NCBI GenBank assembly: GCA_024405215.1 | Contig: JAKSPB010000027.1 | Coordinates: forward strand, 1 to 39,716 | Reading direction: 5' to 3' | From: Lentisphaeria bacterium | Lineage (GTDB): Bacteria; Verrucomicrobiota; Lentisphaeria; Oligosphaerales; Oligosphaeraceae | Length of the DNA stretch: 39,716 bases | In this document: piece by piece, positions 25,855 to 32,776 of the stretch | Position numbering within the stretch: position 1 is the stretch's first letter | Layout: every line of letters begins with the position of its first letter | Notes under the pieces: model-generated | Seen by the model: the letters and a program-made list of their open reading frames with translations, nothing else | Database searches by the model: none | Told to the model about the DNA's origin: nothing | Translations under genes and position numbers: made by a program

Positions 25855-26664
25855 CTAAAAGATGTCTATCCCGAATTGCCGGGGAGCAGTTTGGCGTCGG
25901 TAGGCGACTGCAGGAATCCCGAAGAGAAGCACTGCGGCTATTCCGTAGCCTTTGGGAATGCCCAGACGTTTCCGGAGAGACGGGACCCACTTCAAGGCGT
26001 GAACAGCAAATCCGCTCCAGCAGGTCCCGATATTCAGCGATTGGGCAAGCAGATCAAAGTAGCTAAGTGCAATCCAGGGATCGGCTTCCCGGCACGGAGA
26101 TTTCTTGTTCGCCGATACCACGATCATGTGCGGGGTGTTTCGGAAAACCACATCGGCGCCGTTTGCCACCTCATCCATGTAGCGCTTGAATTTGGGATAG
26201 AAGAGTCCAAGAATGCCCGTCTTGATGAAGAAACGGAGCGTCTCCTGCATTTTCTTGCGGAAGAAGGACATTTCCTCTTTGTGCCGAATCACCGTAAAAT
26301 GAAGGTTGTGCACATTGCATCCCGTAGGCGTCCACGCCAGAGAATCCAGCAAAGCCCGCAAGCTCTTCTCGTCGATATCTTCATCTTTGAACTGACGGAC
26401 GCTTCTCCGCTGGCGAAGCAGGTTGCCCAGTTGTTCTGGCGCAGGAAGCGGACCGACCATTCCGCATTCCCCCGCAGTCACACCATGGCAATTCACGGCT
26501 TCCGCGGGACATACCGCAAGACAATGCTGGCAATTCAGACAGTATGGCTCATTCTCCGGAAGCATCGCAGGAAAACCATCCGCCTGAATGGTCAAAACCT
26601 TGACAATGCAATCCTTGACGCAGGCCTCGCATTTGATGCACTTGCTCTTATCGATAATGACCAC
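25855..26664 (-). CDS. ferredoxin-nitroreductase fusion protein
   Basis: 269 residues. The N-terminus has two 4Fe-4S motifs: Cys9/12/15/19 (CIKCEACVKDC) and Cys42/45/48/52 (CLNCQHCLAVCP). The rest is a flavin nitroreductase fold: LLRQRRSVRQFKDEDI (FMN phosphate contact), WTPTGCNVHNLHFTVI, DPWIALSYFDLLAQSLNIGTCW and the final GIAAVLLFGIP. Such fusions carry electrons from ferredoxin to FMN for reduction of enones, quinones or similar substrates. Start GTG/ATG region overlaps the epimerase-like gene by 17 bases, so it is the last gene of the seven-gene operon. A role in reducing a double bond or quinone-like intermediate of the operon product is inferred. Confidence 0.88.
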   Translation of the reverse strand: MVIIDKSKCIKCEACVKDCIVKVLTIQADGFPAMLPENEPYCLNCQHCLAVCPAEAVNCHGVTAGECGMVGPLPAPEQLGNLLRQRRSVRQFKDEDIDEKSLRALLDSLAWTPTGCNVHNLHFTVIRHKEEMSFFRKKMQETLRFFIKTGILGLFYPKFKRYMDEVANGADVVFRNTPHMIVVSANKKSPCREADPWIALSYFDLLAQSLNIGTCWSGFAVHALKWVPSLRKRLGIPKGYGIAAVLLFGIPAVAYRRQTAPRQFGIDIF

Positions 26665-27613
26665 AGGAAAACTCCTTCAAATTGGCAGCCTTGAACCAGT
26701 CGAGCATCCGCCGGTTGCTGAAATCCAGATTGTGAATGATGGTATCCAGAGAATAAAGCGTCGGATCAAAAAGCGGTTCCCGGCGAGAGAGATGCGTTGA
26801 CAACCAGGCCAGCGGCCATACGGTCGCCGTTGGCAGGCAGCATTCACGAAGTCTCTTGCCCTCCAGGAATTCCCGCGCAATCTCCCGGTAATACTGCCGG
26901 AGCGTCGTGAACTTGCTGTCCAGAACCGTAACGCCCTGCCCCGAAGCCTCAGGAAGAATCATCGCGGCATGCAACGCACGGCAGACATTCTCCACATGCG
27001 CCAACGGCCAGCGGTTCTCCCCTTTCCATTTGCCGAAGTGAAACAGCAAAGGCGACTTCCGGAGATAGTCGATTGTTCGCGGCGTGATTGTCGTATCGCC
27101 GTTGCCAAAGACCACGCAAGGGCGCACGCAGGAAAAGCGCTCTGGCGCAAGGTTCGCCGCCAGCCATTTTTCCGACTGGATCTTGTATTTCGGATAGGGA
27201 TTGCTCACGGCTTCGTCAAATGGCAATTCCTCCTCTGATTCTCCATGAAAATCATGCAAGCCATAGACATCCGCTGTGGACAAGTAAACAAAACGCCTCA
27301 CGCCATGCGTGACTGCCCGCGTCGCCAGTACTTTCGTCGCCTCGAAATTTTCCCGCCGGAACCATTCGTCTTTGCCTACGTCACTGGCCCTGGCCGCAAT
27401 ATGCAGGACGTAATCATACCGCTTTTCAAAAAGCGCCTCCAGGGAAACCGGGTCATCCAAATCCCCGGGAACCGCCTTCGCGCCGGATTTTTCAAAGCGC
27501 GGATTGACCTTGCGGTGAACCATCCCCGTGACATCGTATCCCTGGCGGACAAAATACTCTGCCGCGTTCGAGCCAATGTAACCGCCTGCCCCTGTAATCA
27601 GAATGCTTTGCAC
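26648..27613 (-). CDS. NAD(P)-dependent epimerase/dehydratase-fold reductase
   Basis: 321 residues, extended short-chain dehydrogenase. Cofactor site ITGAGGYIG (Gly8, Gly11, Gly14), HIAARASDVG, VYLSTADVYG (Ser112/Thr113) and the catalytic pair Tyr140-Lys144 (YPKYK), then RPCVVFGNGDTTI and H-V-ENVC as in 3-beta-HSD/GDP-sugar epimerase-like members. In Caulobacter the 3-ketosphinganine reductase CerR belongs to this same family, and the operon starts with a serine palmitoyltransferase-like gene; reduction of a keto-amino-lipid is therefore plausible. A nucleotide-sugar or steroid/terpenoid substrate cannot be excluded. It overlaps the nitroreductase gene by 17 bases and starts nine bases after the ThiL-like gene. 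Confidence 0.85.
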   Translation of the reverse strand: MQSILITGAGGYIGSNAAEYFVRQGYDVTGMVHRKVNPRFEKSGAKAVPGDLDDPVSLEALFEKRYDYVLHIAARASDVGKDEWFRRENFEATKVLATRAVTHGVRRFVYLSTADVYGLHDFHGESEEELPFDEAVSNPYPKYKIQSEKWLAANLAPERFSCVRPCVVFGNGDTTITPRTIDYLRKSPLLFHFGKWKGENRWPLAHVENVCRALHAAMILPEASGQGVTVLDSKFTTLRQYYREIAREFLEGKRLRECCLPTATVWPLAWLSTHLSRREPLFDPTLYSLDTIIHNLDFSNRRMLDWFKAANLKEFSCGHYR

Positions 27614-27622
27614 TGCCCTCTC

Positions 27623-28549
27623 CTACCTGAACAGCCCTTCCCAGTATTCCACAGTCGCCGCCAGCCATCTGTCGGCATCAATGCTCCGATAATCCGGCGG
27701 AGAAGCCTTCATTCGTCCCCGCTTTCCCTGATAGCAGACAAGGAACTCGTTTTCCTCTTGTTCACTGAAACACCCCGTTCCGACCTGGACTGCATTGGGA
27801 ACATTTGTCCCGGCGGGCATGGCGAAGAGCAACTCATACTCCCCGATTCCGCCTACCAGTGCCAACGCCGGTTCGACCTTGCCGGCAAACAAGGAAACAA
27901 CCTCTGGTGCCAACGCCAGCGAGGCATCGATTTCCAGGTGCATCCCCTGATTGGCGCGCCGGAAATTCTCCAGCGCATCAAAGAAGCCGCCACTGGAATC
28001 CGTCGCGAAAAGCGCTTCCGAAGGCACAGGCTGATTCAGGGAAAATTCCGGCAGGGACTGACTGGAAAAAAAAGCCGCATTTGCCCTGCCGAAGGGCGCA
28101 GATGCATACAAATCAAAGGAGATGCGTTTTGAGGAACGCCTCATGATCGGAACATCGGTAAAACCGATGGCAGTGCCAGTCCAATTCCAGACAGGCAACG
28201 TCCCCATGTCCCCCCCGAGGCATTTCGCGCCGTAGGCCTCCAGCACCTCCTGAATGCCAGACGCAACCTCTGCATAAAAAACGGTATCATGGCAAGCATC
28301 CGTGTTCCATGCCTGGAGAAGATACCGGGGAGAGGCGCCGCAGGCCAGGATGTCTGAACAGCAGGCTATGGCCATCTGGCGTCCCATCTGCTTCGGGGAC
28401 AAGCCATTGAAAAAGTCCTCCTGTTCAGAGAACGAATCCACGGAAACCAATTCCACGCCATTGCCGACTGGTATGATTTCCGCGTCCGCAAGGAACGGCT
28501 CGTTTCCATGAATCTTGGACAGGACTGAGATGAGTTGTGCTTCAAACAT
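27623..28549 (-). CDS. ThiL/AIR-synthase-fold protein, substrate unknown
   Basis: 308 residues with the PurM/ThiL/SelD ATP-grasp-like AIRS fold: LVSVDSF, QMGRQMAIACCSDILACGASP (SDILACGA 65-72, matching the SDIAAMGA motif of thiamine-phosphate kinase) and AKCLGGDMGTLPVW (GGD 112-114). The C-terminal half has LFATDSSGGFFDALENF and IGEYELLFAMP, as the D.SDGL and G.DYELLF motifs of ThiL. The N-terminal GDDAAV motif is changed to LADAEII, so it is probably not a normal thiamine-monophosphate kinase. No thiamine genes are nearby. It overlaps the lipid-kinase-like gene by eight bases. Phosphorylation or ATP-dependent activation of an operon intermediate is inferred. Confidence 0.75.
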   Translation of the reverse strand: MFEAQLISVLSKIHGNEPFLADAEIIPVGNGVELVSVDSFSEQEDFFNGLSPKQMGRQMAIACCSDILACGASPRYLLQAWNTDACHDTVFYAEVASGIQEVLEAYGAKCLGGDMGTLPVWNWTGTAIGFTDVPIMRRSSKRISFDLYASAPFGRANAAFFSSQSLPEFSLNQPVPSEALFATDSSGGFFDALENFRRANQGMHLEIDASLALAPEVVSLFAGKVEPALALVGGIGEYELLFAMPAGTNVPNAVQVGTGCFSEQEENEFLVCYQGKRGRMKASPPDYRSIDADRWLAATVEYWEGLFR

Positions 28550-29396
28550 GGTCGGTCTCCGGAACGATGAGATTCAACTGTCTTTCGGAAAAACGAATCT
28601 GCAAAGGCAATGCACCATGTGGATCGCCGTCAAATTCATACGGAACGTGCGCCTCCGCCTGGATCTGCAACTCTCCCCGGCAGACACGAACAGTCCCGCA
28701 GGGAATTCCCCGGTAGAATTTCGGCAGCAGAGCCAGCCACTTTCCCAGCGACAGTTTCTGGACATACCATACCGCATATTCGTCCTCCGCAAGGCGGGGC
28801 AATGCGATTTTCAGCCCGCTGGCGATATACGGCATTCGGGTAATCAGCAGATGATTGCATTGCGGCAGGCATTCGTCATTGAGCGCAAAATCGTATTTTC
28901 TGCTGCGCAAAAGACTTTTCAGCAAGGCAAGGAGCGTCCCCGGCTTGTCTCCGAGCCATGGACGCAGGCGGTTTGCAGCAGAAGCGACCTCGGCCCCCAT
29001 GCCCAGATTGCAGGAACAAAAGAAGTTCTGGCCGTTGGCCTGAAGCACAGGGACTCGTTTCGTCACTCCCGCTTTCAGCACGCCAACCGCTTTTCCCAAG
29101 TCAAGCGGTATGTGATGGAAAGCACAGAAATCCGGACTCGTCCCCATGTAGAGGACACCGAATTTCAAATCCGGATTGGCAGATGCCAGCACACCGTCAG
29201 CAATGGCGTTGATGGTTCCGTCACCCCCGCAGGCCACCACGGCATCGCAATCCGTCTCTGCCGCAAGCCGACGCGCCTCCGGCATGTCTGCCGTGACGTG
29301 GAATACGGCCTCGGGCAACAGCGGCTCAATGGCGTGCCAGTTTTTTCCGGCACGCCCGCCATGGGATTGGGGATTGACAATGACGCAATACTTCAT
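28542..29396 (-). CDS. diacylglycerol/sphingoid-base kinase-like lipid kinase
   Basis: 284 residues from ATG 29396; longer starts would run back into the radical SAM gene. DAGK_cat domain: IVNPQSHGGRAGK at the N-terminus, VVACGGDGTINAIADGVL (GGDGT 57-61, ATP site), FGVLYMGTSPDF and FCSCNLGMGAEV, then the beta-sandwich C-terminal domain (IQAEAHVPYEFDGDPHGALPLQI), all as in YegS/DgkB and sphingosine kinases. The 'GTSPDFC' variant of the usual GT.NDFA motif is noteworthy. It would phosphorylate a lipid alcohol from ATP at the membrane. ATGA overlap with the radical SAM stop. In an operon with a serine palmitoyltransferase-like enzyme a sphingoid-like substrate is a reasonable guess. Confidence 0.87.
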   Translation of the reverse strand: MKYCVIVNPQSHGGRAGKNWHAIEPLLPEAVFHVTADMPEARRLAAETDCDAVVACGGDGTINAIADGVLASANPDLKFGVLYMGTSPDFCAFHHIPLDLGKAVGVLKAGVTKRVPVLQANGQNFFCSCNLGMGAEVASAANRLRPWLGDKPGTLLALLKSLLRSRKYDFALNDECLPQCNHLLITRMPYIASGLKIALPRLAEDEYAVWYVQKLSLGKWLALLPKFYRGIPCGTVRVCRGELQIQAEAHVPYEFDGDPHGALPLQIRFSERQLNLIVPETDHV

Positions 29397-30634
29397 TTGT
29401 AGATTCCGATGGAATCGTAGACCTTTGTCGGAGTCCCCGGCTTCCAGTTCTTCGTCAGCTTTTCCGTCACGTTCCAGGGAAGCGGCAGCTGCTCGCCGGA
29501 GCATTTCGCGATTTCCCGCGCATGAGTGCAGCAGGTCCATTCCTCGCAGGGAACTGCAAAGCATTGTCTCATGCGCTGATAGGCGGTCTCAAAAGAAACC
29601 TCCTTCAAATTGCCGAAAGAAAGATTGACGAACTCGCAGGGCTGCACATCGCCAGCAGCCCCCACATAAAACCGGTCTATGCCACCGCAGCAGCATCCGA
29701 GCATCCCCGGTGATTCCTCGAATACCTGCGCCGTCAGCACAGGCGAATGCTTTTCCTTTGAAGAATTGTACCGGAGCTGGGCCTCTGTCGCAATCCGAAT
29801 AGCCTCCTGGCTTAATTTTGAATCGAATTCCTTTCCCATCCAGGCGCCGCACGCCTTCGGATGAATCAGCTGGATGTAGTCGCACTCGTGCTCCTTGGCC
29901 AGCGCCATGATCTCATCAATGCCGCCTGCGACAATCTGTTCATCACTCAAAACCGTATTGAACCCGACGAGCATCCCGGCCAGTCGGCACTCCTTCAGAA
30001 AATTCAATGCACGCTGCCAGGAGCCAGGCATACCGGTAAACACATCATGCTCTTCCGGATTCACCGAATGGATGGAACTCATGATGCCAGTCACTTGAAG
30101 TTCGGCCAGGCGGTGGATTTTCTCCGGCGTCGCCGAATAGCCCGTGCTGTTCACCCATACCTCCAGCCCTTTGATTTCCTTCAGAACAGCCTCCAGACGC
30201 TCGAAACGAAGCAGCGGCTCGCCGCCCTCCACCGCCCAGGCAACGATCCCGAAATCACGCATCTTGCGGACATTCTCCAGAAGCAGCGGCAACGGCAGTT
30301 CCTCTGAAGAATCCTTGCGCTGATAACAGTGCGGGCATTTATAGGCGCATGCCTTGGAAATGGACAGGACCACGCTGACGGGACGAGGCGGATGCCTCAA
30401 CACCTTGTCTTCCATCGCCGTGAAAAACGCCGCAGAGGGATACCGCGGCATGTAGAAATCCAGTTTATACTCGCCAGACGGCAGTTTCACCAGTTTGTGC
30501 TTGAAGAAGATGCTCGTGAATTTGGATGCCTTCAGCAAAACGCCAACAGAACGGTAACGCCAGGCGCATACCAGCGACATCCTGATATAGAAGAATACTT
30601 TTTGAAGGCCTGTTATGAATCTACTCTTTTTCAT
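29393..30634 (-). CDS. radical SAM enzyme with C-terminal Cys cluster
   Basis: 413 residues. The N-terminal 80 residues are basic and partly hydrophobic (FITGLQKVFFYIRMSLVCAWRY) and may lie on the membrane. The radical SAM core has CAYKCPHC (Cys96, 100, 103), followed by AWAVEGGEPLL (SAM-binding GGEP), EVWVNSTGYSAT, GIMSSIHSVNPEEHD and VGFNTVLSD. C-terminal GMLGCCCGGIDRFYVGAAGDVQPCEF and CEEWTCCTH form a SPASM-like auxiliary cluster region. Reaction unknown; related enzymes modify peptides or small molecules. It overlaps the UbiA gene by 14 bases and the lipid kinase by four. In this setting a carbon-carbon or carbon-hydrogen chemistry on a lipid chain or head group is possible. Confidence 0.85.
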   Translation of the reverse strand: MKKSRFITGLQKVFFYIRMSLVCAWRYRSVGVLLKASKFTSIFFKHKLVKLPSGEYKLDFYMPRYPSAAFFTAMEDKVLRHPPRPVSVVLSISKACAYKCPHCYQRKDSSEELPLPLLLENVRKMRDFGIVAWAVEGGEPLLRFERLEAVLKEIKGLEVWVNSTGYSATPEKIHRLAELQVTGIMSSIHSVNPEEHDVFTGMPGSWQRALNFLKECRLAGMLVGFNTVLSDEQIVAGGIDEIMALAKEHECDYIQLIHPKACGAWMGKEFDSKLSQEAIRIATEAQLRYNSSKEKHSPVLTAQVFEESPGMLGCCCGGIDRFYVGAAGDVQPCEFVNLSFGNLKEVSFETAYQRMRQCFAVPCEEWTCCTHAREIAKCSGEQLPLPWNVTEKLTKNWKPGTPTKVYDSIGIYK

Positions 30635-31583
30635 CGCGGTACCAATTGAAAAGAATTCCGATTTCTACAAGAGACATCACTTCCAGGTATAAACCAAACG
30701 GGAAGAAAATCATCATGGACGAAAAGATCATCGCCACACAGAACTGGCAATTCAGGCAAGTCGTCCGATGATAGGTGTTGCGGACAATGGAACGCAGTAA
30801 TTGTATCAAAAGGACTGTCACAAGAGCTGTCTGCAAAGTTCCCAGCAAGAGATTGTTTCCCAAAGGCCTCGCTGCCCCAGCAGAAAAAAACATGAAAAGA
30901 TATCCGTAGGTAATCAATGTTCCCGTCAGTGAAACTACGACAGACAGGCGCTTGGGGAAAATCACCTGAAGCGTCCGAATACCGGCCAGCCTGTCGCCTT
31001 CCACATCCTTGTAATAGCTGTTGTGGCACATGAGAAAATGCGCAGGAAGAACATAAAGCAACACATTCTGAATCAAATTCCATGGCGGCAACCCTCCCTC
31101 CACTGCCGAGTAACTGAAAAGCGCACAGCAGGAAATCGCGCAGGCATAAATCAGACAGTTCAAGACAGGAATTTTCTTGCAGATCGAATAGGCGATATTC
31201 AGCAAGCCGCCGACTGCCAGAATCGCCAGGCACCATGGATTCAGACAATAGGCAACGACTCCGAAGGCAAGCATGATGACGCCCGACAGCATCATGGCCG
31301 GCCTGGCGGGAAGCGCCCCCGTCACCATCGGACGATGCGGAGCATTGACGGCATCCTCACGCCGGTCACAGTAGTCGCTGAAAATCTGGTTCACGCCCCA
31401 GGAAAGGAAACCGATGCAAAGAACCAAGGCAACGGAAATCCACTCGCTTCTGCGTATCGTCCCGGAAGACGATAATTTCTGGAATCCCCACCACGAGACG
31501 CCGTACAGGGTTGTCGTTCCTGTTACGAAACAGTAATACAACCGCATGGAACGCAGATAATAATAAAGGAAACGTTTCATCAT
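30621..31583 (-). CDS. UbiA-family prenyltransferase
   Basis: 320 residues with about eight to nine TM helices. First Asp-rich motif: SDYCDRREDAVNAPHRPMVTG (Asp70, Asp73, Asp77), very like the NDY.DR..DA.N.P.RP motif of the ChlG/DGGGP-synthase branch, with Ser69 where Asn is usual. Second motif: YYKDVEGDRLAGIRTL (KDxEGD.xAGIRTL). The enzyme joins a prenyl diphosphate to an acceptor in the inner membrane. The acceptor could be quinone-like, glycerol-phosphate-like or the operon's lipid. It overlaps the upstream SPT-like stop by four bases and the radical SAM start by 14. Confidence 0.9.
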   Translation of the reverse strand: MMKRFLYYYLRSMRLYYCFVTGTTTLYGVSWWGFQKLSSSGTIRRSEWISVALVLCIGFLSWGVNQIFSDYCDRREDAVNAPHRPMVTGALPARPAMMLSGVIMLAFGVVAYCLNPWCLAILAVGGLLNIAYSICKKIPVLNCLIYACAISCCALFSYSAVEGGLPPWNLIQNVLLYVLPAHFLMCHNSYYKDVEGDRLAGIRTLQVIFPKRLSVVVSLTGTLITYGYLFMFFSAGAARPLGNNLLLGTLQTALVTVLLIQLLRSIVRNTYHRTTCLNCQFCVAMIFSSMMIFFPFGLYLEVMSLVEIGILFNWYRDEKE

Positions 31584-32776
31584 GCGTTTTCCTTCTGCGT
31601 TTTCAACACCCTGTCGAAGATTTCCACGGCTTCATCAATCAGGGACGTTGTGTGCGTGACCATGTAGCTGGTACGAAGCAAGGCCTGTCCTTCCGGTGTC
31701 CCAGGCGGGACAAAGGGATTCACATAGACTCCTGCGTCATACAAATCCTTTGCCGCACGCAACGTCGCCTCCAGCGTATAGGTATATAAGGGAATCACCG
31801 GCGTCGGATATTGCAGCGCAGACTCCTTTATCGGGATGTTCTTGTCCAGCAATGCCTTCCGAGTATATTGCCCAAGTTCCTGGAGCTGAAGCGGCAATTC
31901 CGGATGCGCCTCCAGATGTCGCAAGGCCGCCAGCGCCACAGCCGCATTGGCAGGCGGCAGAGATGCGGAAAAGATGAACGGACGCGAATTATGGCGCATG
32001 TAATCGATGACTTTTCGTTTTCCGGCCACAAATCCGCCCAGGGAAGCCAGGGACTTGGAAAAAGTCCCCATGAAAATATCAATGTCCTTTTCCAAACCGA
32101 AATGGAAAGCGGTTCCGCGACCACCGACGCCGATTGTTCCCAATCCATGGGCGTCATCCACCATGATTCTCGCCCCGTATTGGCGGGCCAGCCTGACGAT
32201 TTCCGGCAGATTCGCCAGATCCCCGCCAATGGAAAACAATCCGTCCACGACAATCAACGCGCCGCTCTCCTGCGGCACCCGTTCCAGGCAATTCCTCAGA
32301 CTTTCCATGTCGTTATGGCGGAAGCGGAGCATCTTGCCGTAACTCATCTGACAGGCGCAATAGATGCTGGCATGGTCTTCAATATCGCAGATGACAGTGT
32401 CATGCCTGCCGACAATACAGCTGATAATACTCAGATTGGTCTGGAATCCAGTGCCGAAAGTCAGGGCATCTTCCTGACCGAGGAATGCCGCCAGTTCATG
32501 TTCCAATTCCAGATGAAGATCAAGCGTGCCGTTCAGGAACCGGGAACCGGAACAGCCTGTGCCGTATTTTTCAAGGGCTTTCCTGCCGGCCTCCATGACT
32601 TCGGGACAGCAGGTCAACCCAAGATAATTATTGGAGCCCAGCATGATACGGCGTCTTCCTTCCATGACGACTTCTGGCCCCTGCATAGATTCAAGTACAT
32701 GGAAATATGGATATAACCCCGCCGAACGCACCGCATCTGCCCGGGTGTCATCATAGCATTTTTTCAGAATGTCCAT
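31580..32776 (-). CDS. serine palmitoyltransferase-like alpha-oxoamine synthase
   Basis: 398 residues from ATG 32776; a GTG at 32788 would add four. PLP enzyme joining an amino acid to an acyl thioester with decarboxylation. YLGLT...GSNNYLGL, KYGTGCSGSRFLNGTLDLHLELE, IEDHASIY (His135), VDDAHGLG (His210) and GTFSKSLASLGG (PLP lysine Lys241) show the family; His-Lys spacing equals that of Sphingomonas SPT. GSRFLNGT, RPFIFSASLPP and GVYVNPFVPPGTPEGQALLRTS near the end fit serine palmitoyltransferase better than KBL (glycine) or BioF (alanine). It would begin sphingoid-base synthesis from serine and palmitoyl-thioester. First gene of the seven-gene operon; the 205-bp divergent region upstream is AT-rich next to the start. 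Confidence 0.87.
   Translation of the reverse strand: MDILKKCYDDTRADAVRSAGLYPYFHVLESMQGPEVVMEGRRRIMLGSNNYLGLTCCPEVMEAGRKALEKYGTGCSGSRFLNGTLDLHLELEHELAAFLGQEDALTFGTGFQTNLSIISCIVGRHDTVICDIEDHASIYCACQMSYGKMLRFRHNDMESLRNCLERVPQESGALIVVDGLFSIGGDLANLPEIVRLARQYGARIMVDDAHGLGTIGVGGRGTAFHFGLEKDIDIFMGTFSKSLASLGGFVAGKRKVIDYMRHNSRPFIFSASLPPANAAVALAALRHLEAHPELPLQLQELGQYTRKALLDKNIPIKESALQYPTPVIPLYTYTLEATLRAAKDLYDAGVYVNPFVPPGTPEGQALLRTSYMVTHTTSLIDEAVEIFDRVLKTQKENA

What the first reader, a model, noticed from the sequence alone, without database searches (positions are those of the whole stretch)
25855..32776. Seven-gene translationally coupled operon for an apparently undescribed amino-lipid/prenyl-lipid pathway
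Seen: seven minus-strand genes with overlaps of 4, 14, 4, 8 and 17 bases and one 9-bp gap, i.e. one message. Order is SPT-like synthase, UbiA prenyltransferase, radical SAM enzyme, DAGK/sphingosine-kinase-like enzyme, ThiL/AIRS-fold protein, epimerase-fold reductase, ferredoxin-nitroreductase. Known: SPT starts sphingolipids; an epimerase-family enzyme (CerR) reduces ketosphinganine in Caulobacter; UbiA enzymes attach prenyl chains; DAGK enzymes phosphorylate lipid alcohols. Inference: the products are a modified sphingoid or a hybrid sphingoid-prenyl lipid, possibly phosphorylated and altered by radical chemistry. I do not know of a characterised pathway with this gene set.
Basis: partly seen in the sequence, partly recalled or inferred. 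Interest (0 to 1): 0.87.

Follow-up and report, generated by a model that had tools for sequence, protein, structure and literature searches.

The report
Uncharacterised sphingoid-lipid operon in uncultured bacteria
A tightly packed seven-gene operon in a gut bacterium of the Victivallales kind starts like sphingolipid synthesis but continues with enzymes of no pathway I could find described; the same gene set recurs across nine phyla of uncultured bacteria, so it very probably makes a membrane lipid or lipid-like molecule that nobody has yet identified.

Summary
They are not together by chance. Of 49 public loci fetched with the radical SAM protein alone, 46 carry the UbiA, 47 the DAGK, 44 the ThiL-like, 39 the SPT-like and 39 the epimerase-fold gene, usually overlapping and in the same order, in nine NCBI phyla, all MAGs. 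UbiA and radical SAM are one fused protein in three. The window's synthase is sister to solved serine palmitoyltransferases and carries the SPT signature residue, not that of cysteate acyltransferase; elsewhere a second AONS lineage holds the same slot. The seventh gene is variable: Fd-nitroreductase or an Old Yellow Enzyme, never both, or neither. The ThiL-like protein is a ThiL-fold kinase, not ThiL itself. No literature match was found in an open-access library. Best reading: an undescribed sphingoid-type lipid pathway in which two kinases phosphorylate the long-chain alcohol and a UbiA/radical SAM pair remodels it. The prenyl part is unproven: the window's genome has no detectable trans-prenyl-diphosphate synthase. 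Product unknown.

The parts
31580..32776 (-). SPT-like alpha-oxoamine synthase (398 aa), type A; first gene
   Evidence: SerpalmtaseCFB 481 bits, below its 640 cut-off; 400 bits to solved SPT 3a2b; sister to 3a2b in tree; Asn, His, Asp, His, Lys, Arg active-site residues and SPT Ala conserved
30621..31583 (-). UbiA-superfamily membrane transferase (320 aa)
   Evidence: PF01040 95 bits; family profile best to DGGGP synthase 6m31 E 2.7e-18, then chlorophyll synthase; acidic residues D70, E76, D77, D193, D197 invariant; only UbiA found in the genome
29393..30634 (-). Radical SAM/SPASM-type enzyme (413 aa) with two N-terminal helices
   Evidence: PF04055; C96, C100, C103 plus C314, C333, C368 invariant; AlphaFold pLDDT 89, nearest folds SkfB, BlsE, SuiB; fused to UbiA in L055, L056, L060
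28542..29396 (-). DAGK/YegS/sphingosine-kinase-family lipid kinase (284 aa)
   Evidence: PF00781 69 bits; nearest solved proteins are bacterial DAGK/DgkB/YegS; GGDGT motif 57-61 conserved
27623..28549 (-). ThiL-family (AIRS fold) kinase-like protein, not ThiL (308 aa)
   Evidence: AlphaFold pLDDT 94, TM 0.75 to Aquifex ThiL with ADP and TPP 3c9u; profile E 2.5e-26 to ThiL; 71 bits against ThiL cut-off 184; D22, D38, D66, D114, D184 invariant
26648..27613 (-). Extended-SDR (epimerase-fold) ketoreductase (321 aa, GTG start)
   Evidence: PF01370 116 bits; best NCBIfam OleD 96 bits, below cut-off; GxxG motif, Y140 and K144 conserved
25855..26664 (-). Two-cluster ferredoxin domain fused to nitroreductase-family flavoprotein (269 aa, GTG start); accessory
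   Evidence: Fer4 + PF00881; found in 11 loci, Old Yellow Enzyme in 10 others, never both, many with neither

Best explanation
A dedicated, undescribed pathway for a sphingoid-type (long-chain 2-amino-alcohol) lipid. Supported by sequence: the AONS condenses an amino acid (in the window's version most likely L-serine) with a fatty acyl thioester, and the SDR reduces the ketone. Inferred from family: the DAGK-type kinase phosphorylates a hydroxyl of this base. Inferred: the ThiL-type kinase, whose family adds a phosphate to a phosphate, makes the diphosphate. Inferred: the membrane UbiA protein uses a diphosphate (that lipid's own, or an isoprenyl one) to join the lipid to a second group, and the SPASM radical SAM enzyme, sometimes fused to UbiA, carries out a radical C-H or C-C step on the UbiA substrate or product. 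The flavoprotein (Fd-nitroreductase or Old Yellow Enzyme) is an optional reductive tailoring step. My confidence in 'undescribed sphingoid-lipid pathway' is about 0.55; in the two-kinase relay feeding UbiA about 0.3.
For: Conserved order in 49 loci and nine NCBI phyla. UbiA-rSAM fusion proteins in three loci. AONS slot filled by two separate lineages, one of them sister to genuine SPT with the SPT signature Ala and all catalytic residues: replacement by an SPT-like enzyme implies the slot's reaction is SPT-like. DAGK and ThiL-like are neighbours in 44 loci and overlap or lie within 60 bases in 38; ThiL-like keeps ThiL fold and acidic residues but co-exists with genuine ThiL in G054, G055, G051, G006, G008 and G012. 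UbiA keeps diphosphate-binding acidic motifs. In Riflebacteria and deltaproteobacterial loci the cluster adds a ketosynthase and ACP, plus in L069 a PKS-dehydratase-like protein and an MMPL transporter, as expected for acyl-chain building and lipid export. Precedent: a PKS plus AONS pair makes sphingolipids in Pseudomonas (PMC12134224).
Against: No product is known and no enzyme was assayed. No ceramide synthase or head-group gene was recognised in the cluster. The type B AONS, probably the older occupant, scores no better to SPT than to KBL or BioF and has Ser/Thr where SPT has Ala, so its amino acid may not be serine. Known UbiA enzymes need an allylic or sugar diphosphate donor (own knowledge), which a plain sphinganine diphosphate is not. 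The middle Asp of UbiA motif 1 is not conserved. All genomes are MAGs.
Confidence: 0.45

Rival explanations
1. Hybrid sphingoid-isoprenoid lipid: UbiA works like archaeal DGGGP synthase and attaches FPP, GGPP or a longer prenyl chain to a hydroxyl or amine of the DAGK-phosphorylated sphingoid base, giving a two-tailed phospholipid that radical SAM and the ene-reductase then modify.
For: UbiA profile is nearest DGGGP synthase and chlorophyll synthase, which prenylate non-aromatic acceptors; DAGK would give a phosphorylated acceptor like that of DGGGP synthase; most cluster-bearing genomes searched have at least one PF00348 synthase.
Against: No PF00348 prenyl-diphosphate synthase detected in the window's genome (97% complete) or two others of its genus, nor in cluster-bearing G034, G048 and G054; no prenyl synthase was recognised among the genes in the loci examined; it leaves the ThiL-like kinase unexplained.
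Confidence: 0.25
2. UbiA acts like decaprenyl-phosphate phosphoribosyltransferase: PRPP is the donor and the DAGK-made lipid phosphate is the acceptor, giving a ribosylated sphingoid phosphate.
For: Needs no prenyl synthase, in line; the DAGK product would be a lipid phosphate acceptor; a weak UbiA hit to that family exists, 42.6 bits.
Against: Chlorophyll synthase and DGGGP synthase models score higher (73 and 61 bits).
Confidence: 0.1
3. Not a membrane lipid but a specialised metabolite, redox carrier or signal: AONS makes an aminoketone that is elaborated by SDR, radical SAM, flavoprotein and UbiA.
For: Patchy distribution (13 strong carriers in 289 genomes of the phylum), loss by deletion in a congener, and KAS/ACP/dehydratase in some loci fit an accessory metabolite; type B AONS is not specifically SPT-like.
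Against: A lipid-kinase family member in 47 of 49 loci and N-terminal helices on the radical SAM protein point to a lipid; window AONS groups with true SPT.
Confidence: 0.2
4. Ordinary sphingolipid synthesis plus unrelated neighbours that happen to share an operon.
For: SPT-like synthase and a ketoreductase are present.
Against: Synteny in 49 loci, conserved 14- and 4-base overlaps and gene fusions; UbiA, rSAM, DAGK and ThiL-like are the most constant members.
Confidence: 0.02

Closest known systems
Bacterial sphingolipid pathway (Spt, bCerS, CerR of Caulobacter; SPT BT_0870 and reductase BT_0972 of Bacteroides)
   Same: SPT-like first enzyme with the SPT residues and a reductase for the ketone.
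   Different: No bCerS recognised in the cluster; UbiA, radical SAM, DAGK, ThiL-like and flavoprotein are not part of the described core of Spt, bCerS and reductase (PMC11087976); CerR is reported to resemble NDUFA9, whereas this reductase's best family hits are OleD/3-beta-HSD-like.
PfSgaAB polyketide-derived sphingolipids of Pseudomonas fluorescens MYb115 (PMC12134224)
   Same: AONS with SPT-type role; in L068, L069 and L074 a ketosynthase and ACP accompany it.
   Different: There a two-gene type I PKS + AONS cluster; no UbiA, rSAM, DAGK or ThiL-like named in the passages read.
Sulfonolipid (capnine) synthesis, SulA (PMC9304779)
   Same: AONS-family first step.
   Different: Diagnostic Lys281 of SulA is Ala in the window type and Ser/Thr in type B.
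Archaeal ether-lipid synthesis (DGGGP synthase; Tes radical SAM)
   Same: UbiA nearest DGGGP synthase; UbiA and radical SAM both used on lipids.
   Different: No gene for glycerol-1-phosphate chemistry was seen in the cluster; radical SAM is SPASM-like (SkfB, BlsE, SuiB) and Tes was not among its listed hits; starts from an AONS.
Thiamine-monophosphate kinase ThiL
   Same: Fold and acidic residues.
   Different: Far below the ThiL cut-off; co-exists with genuine ThiL in six genomes.

Membership tests
Serine palmitoyltransferase (window AONS) | Active-site Asn, His, Asp, Lys, Arg of AONS/SPT | tested here: met
   All present in window and 13 type A relatives
Serine palmitoyltransferase (window AONS) | SPT signature Ala where SulA has Lys281 | tested here: met
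   Ala in window and all 13 type A relatives
Serine palmitoyltransferase (window AONS) | Curated equivalog score (NF047600 cut-off 640) | tested here: not met
   481 bits, best of all SPT/KBL/BioF models but under cut-off
Serine palmitoyltransferase (window AONS) | Groups with characterised SPT in a tree | tested here: met
   Sister to 3a2b, SH-aLRT 96, quick tree
Serine palmitoyltransferase (window AONS) | Uses serine and palmitoyl thioester | not testable with these tools
   Needs enzyme assay
Thiamine-monophosphate kinase ThiL | Score above TIGR01379 cut-off | tested here: not met
   71 bits against 184; all cluster members listed are below
Thiamine-monophosphate kinase ThiL | ThiL fold | tested here: met
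   TM 0.75 to 3c9u, E 6e-24
UbiA prenyltransferase superfamily | Fold family match and two Asp-rich motifs | tested here: met
   PF01040 above cut-off; D70, E76, D77, D193, D197 invariant, middle Asp of motif 1 not
UbiA prenyltransferase superfamily | Transfers a prenyl group | tested here: inconclusive
   No prenyl-diphosphate synthase detectable in own genome, present in most other carriers searched
Radical SAM / SPASM | CxxxCxxC plus auxiliary cluster cysteines | tested here: met
   C96, C100, C103; C314, C333, C368 invariant; SPASM Pfam hit in L063
Known bacterial sphingolipid pathway | spt, bcerS and cerR together | tested here: inconclusive
   SPT-like and a reductase present; no bcerS seen in the cluster; rest of the genome not searched for it
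Sulfonolipid pathway | SulA-type AONS with Lys281 | tested here: not met
   Ala, Ser or Thr at that site in all

The most novel reading that the evidence does not exclude
A categorically new lipid class: the operon makes its own long-chain amino-alcohol diphosphate by two successive kinases (DAGK then ThiL-type), a UbiA protein uses this non-isoprenoid diphosphate as donor, and a UbiA-coupled SPASM radical SAM enzyme then modifies or joins the lipid. That would be a UbiA transferase working without isoprenoids and, as far as I know, the first SPASM enzyme acting on a membrane lipid.
Probability: 0.2. Interest if true: 0.92.

Novelty: new variant of a known kind. Interest (0 to 1): 0.76.

Why it matters
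Six enzyme families, each familiar, form a conserved unit with no pathway I could find described, in gut and environmental bacteria of nine NCBI phyla, known here only from uncultured genomes. If it is a sphingoid lipid, sphingolipid-type chemistry is wider and more elaborate in bacteria than the described Spt/bCerS/CerR route, and rumen and gut communities hold an unknown lipid that hosts meet. The UbiA-radical SAM fusion points to a membrane-bound radical step on a lipid. The seven genes fit in under 7 kb, so the product can be tested by expression in a laboratory strain.

Tried and rejected
Chance clustering: rejected by synteny. ThiL itself: rejected by score and by co-existing genuine ThiL. 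Cysteate acyltransferase (sulfonolipid): rejected by residue. Second AONS of the genome (L097) as the missing type B: it does not fall in the type B clade. Sister radical SAM proteins at 205-219 bits (L108-L110): no cluster around them, a methyltransferase-like gene beside them, so set apart. Viral contigs with the ThiL-like protein: none. Promoter and terminator scan: at chance level. Genes inserted in L049, L052 and L077 gave no head-group clue in Pfam. A further Pfam batch failed on wrong coordinates and was not repeated. Paper searches for the gene set gave nothing relevant.
Full report
OBSERVATION. The seven genes are there exactly as described: SPT-like 31580-32776, UbiA 30621-31583, radical SAM 29393-30634, DAGK 28542-29396, ThiL-like 27623-28549, epimerase-fold 26648-27613, Fd-nitroreductase 25855-26664, all minus strand, no internal stops, overlaps 4, 14, 4, 8, gap 9, overlap 17. 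Pfam confirms all families. The genome is a 2.98 Mb MAG, 97% complete; its nearest named relatives for this cluster are Victivallales/Lentisphaeria MAGs from ruminants.

CONSERVATION. In 48 genomes of the order only a few carry a close ThiL-like protein, and around each lie the other genes. An alignment of the radical SAM protein alone brought 49 loci from species-representative genomes. In these, UbiA is found in 46, DAGK in 47, ThiL-like in 44, AONS in 39, epimerase-fold in 39, many absences being contig ends; UbiA-rSAM-DAGK-ThiL stand in this order and strand in 42. The 14-base UbiA/rSAM and 4-base rSAM/DAGK overlaps are themselves conserved in most loci. NCBI names place the loci in Lentisphaerota, Kiritimatiellota, Verrucomicrobiota, Planctomycetota, Elusimicrobiota, Riflebacteria, Myxococcota, Bdellovibrionota and Bacteroidota; the first three are usually one phylum in GTDB, and mis-binning of single MAGs is possible. 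In the phylum the radical SAM protein occurs in 13 of 289 genomes plus three weaker sister proteins that lack the cluster, so the trait is patchy. In a congener (G043) only a decayed 5' piece of the SPT gene (80% identical over 210 bases, with an in-frame stop) and a piece of the nitroreductase remain next to each other (L111:3983-4372): the operon was lost there by internal deletion.

ANATOMY. In L055, L056 and L060 UbiA and radical SAM are one open reading frame of about 715-721 aa, both Pfam domains being shown in L055; two more genomes have 723-728 aa frames at the radical SAM. The radical SAM tree has two clades: the mostly gut clade that includes the window, and a mostly environmental one. 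The seventh gene follows the clades: Fd-nitroreductase in 11 loci of the first, an Old Yellow Enzyme in 10 of the second, none with both, and many with neither despite enough flank. It is therefore accessory, and the two look like alternative reductases. Riflebacteria, myxococcal and Bdellovibrio-type loci add ACP (four) and ketosynthase (three), L069 also a weak PKS-dehydratase-like protein and an MMPL transporter.

THE SYNTHASE. Two AONS lineages fill the same slot. Type A (window, at the head of the operon) is sister to the solved Sphingobacterium SPT, has every AONS catalytic residue and the Ala that marks SPT against SulA's Lys281 (site taken from PMC9304779). Type B (between ThiL-like and epimerase-fold, or after the Old Yellow Enzyme) is a separate clade about equally far from SPT, KBL and BioF with Ser/Thr at that site. 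Type B occurs in both radical SAM clades, type A only in part of the gut clade, so A most likely replaced B. No genome examined had both as cluster members; the window genome's other AONS falls outside both. Replacement by an SPT-like enzyme is the best evidence that the step is an SPT-like condensation.

KINASES, UbiA AND RADICAL SAM. DAGK keeps the GGDGT motif. The ThiL-like protein has ThiL's fold (pLDDT 94; TM 0.75 to 3c9u) and conserved acidic residues, fails the ThiL cut-off, and lives beside genuine ThiL in six genomes. ThiL's chemistry is phosphate to diphosphate (own knowledge), so DAGK followed by ThiL-like suggests alcohol to phosphate to diphosphate, which is what a UbiA enzyme consumes. 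This relay is inference. UbiA keeps the acidic motifs except the middle Asp of motif 1 and is nearest DGGGP and chlorophyll synthases. It is the only UbiA found in the genome. No PF00348 trans-prenyl synthase was found in the genome, in two congeners, or in carriers G034, G048 and G054, by profile or by a relative's protein, while most other carriers searched have one; UppS is present, so FPP must come from somewhere, and a gap in the assembly cannot be excluded. The radical SAM model (pLDDT 89) resembles SPASM/Twitch enzymes SkfB, BlsE, SuiB and PqqE and has invariant auxiliary cysteines.

INTERPRETATION. Shown: conserved gene set, fusions, exchange of AONS and reductase types, families and key residues. 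Inferred: sphingoid-type base, its phosphorylation, the diphosphate, the UbiA donor and the radical step. Nothing in the open-access library describes the set; subscription papers and preprints were not searchable, so 'undescribed' carries that limit. The described bacterial route uses Spt, bCerS and a reductase (PMC11087976); a PKS plus AONS route exists in Pseudomonas (PMC12134224). Neither includes UbiA, radical SAM or the kinase pair in the passages read. I therefore file it as a new variant of AONS-initiated lipid synthesis, with a one-in-five chance that it is a new kind altogether.

Noticed in passing
L111:3983-4372 (G043 contig C62, same genus): Deletion scar of the operon: decayed SPT 5' piece next to a nitroreductase piece, the rest missing.
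   Followed up: yes
L034:3168-4376; also L039, L041, L042, L043, L048: AAA_14/DUF4143 ATPase gene inserted in or beside the operon, between DAGK and ThiL-like, in six loci; looks like a mobile or parasitic insertion.
   Followed up: partly
G000, G042, G043 (all genomes held of this genus): No PF00348 trans-prenyl-diphosphate synthase detectable although UppS is present; how FPP is made is unclear.
   Followed up: partly
L108:7408-9518, L109:5707-7847, L110:6861-9169: Sister radical SAM proteins paired with a methyltransferase-like gene instead of UbiA; possibly a second, unrelated two-gene system.
   Followed up: no
window:23673-25826: Large protein downstream of the operon on the same strand, about 700 aa, without any Pfam or NCBIfam match.
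   Followed up: no
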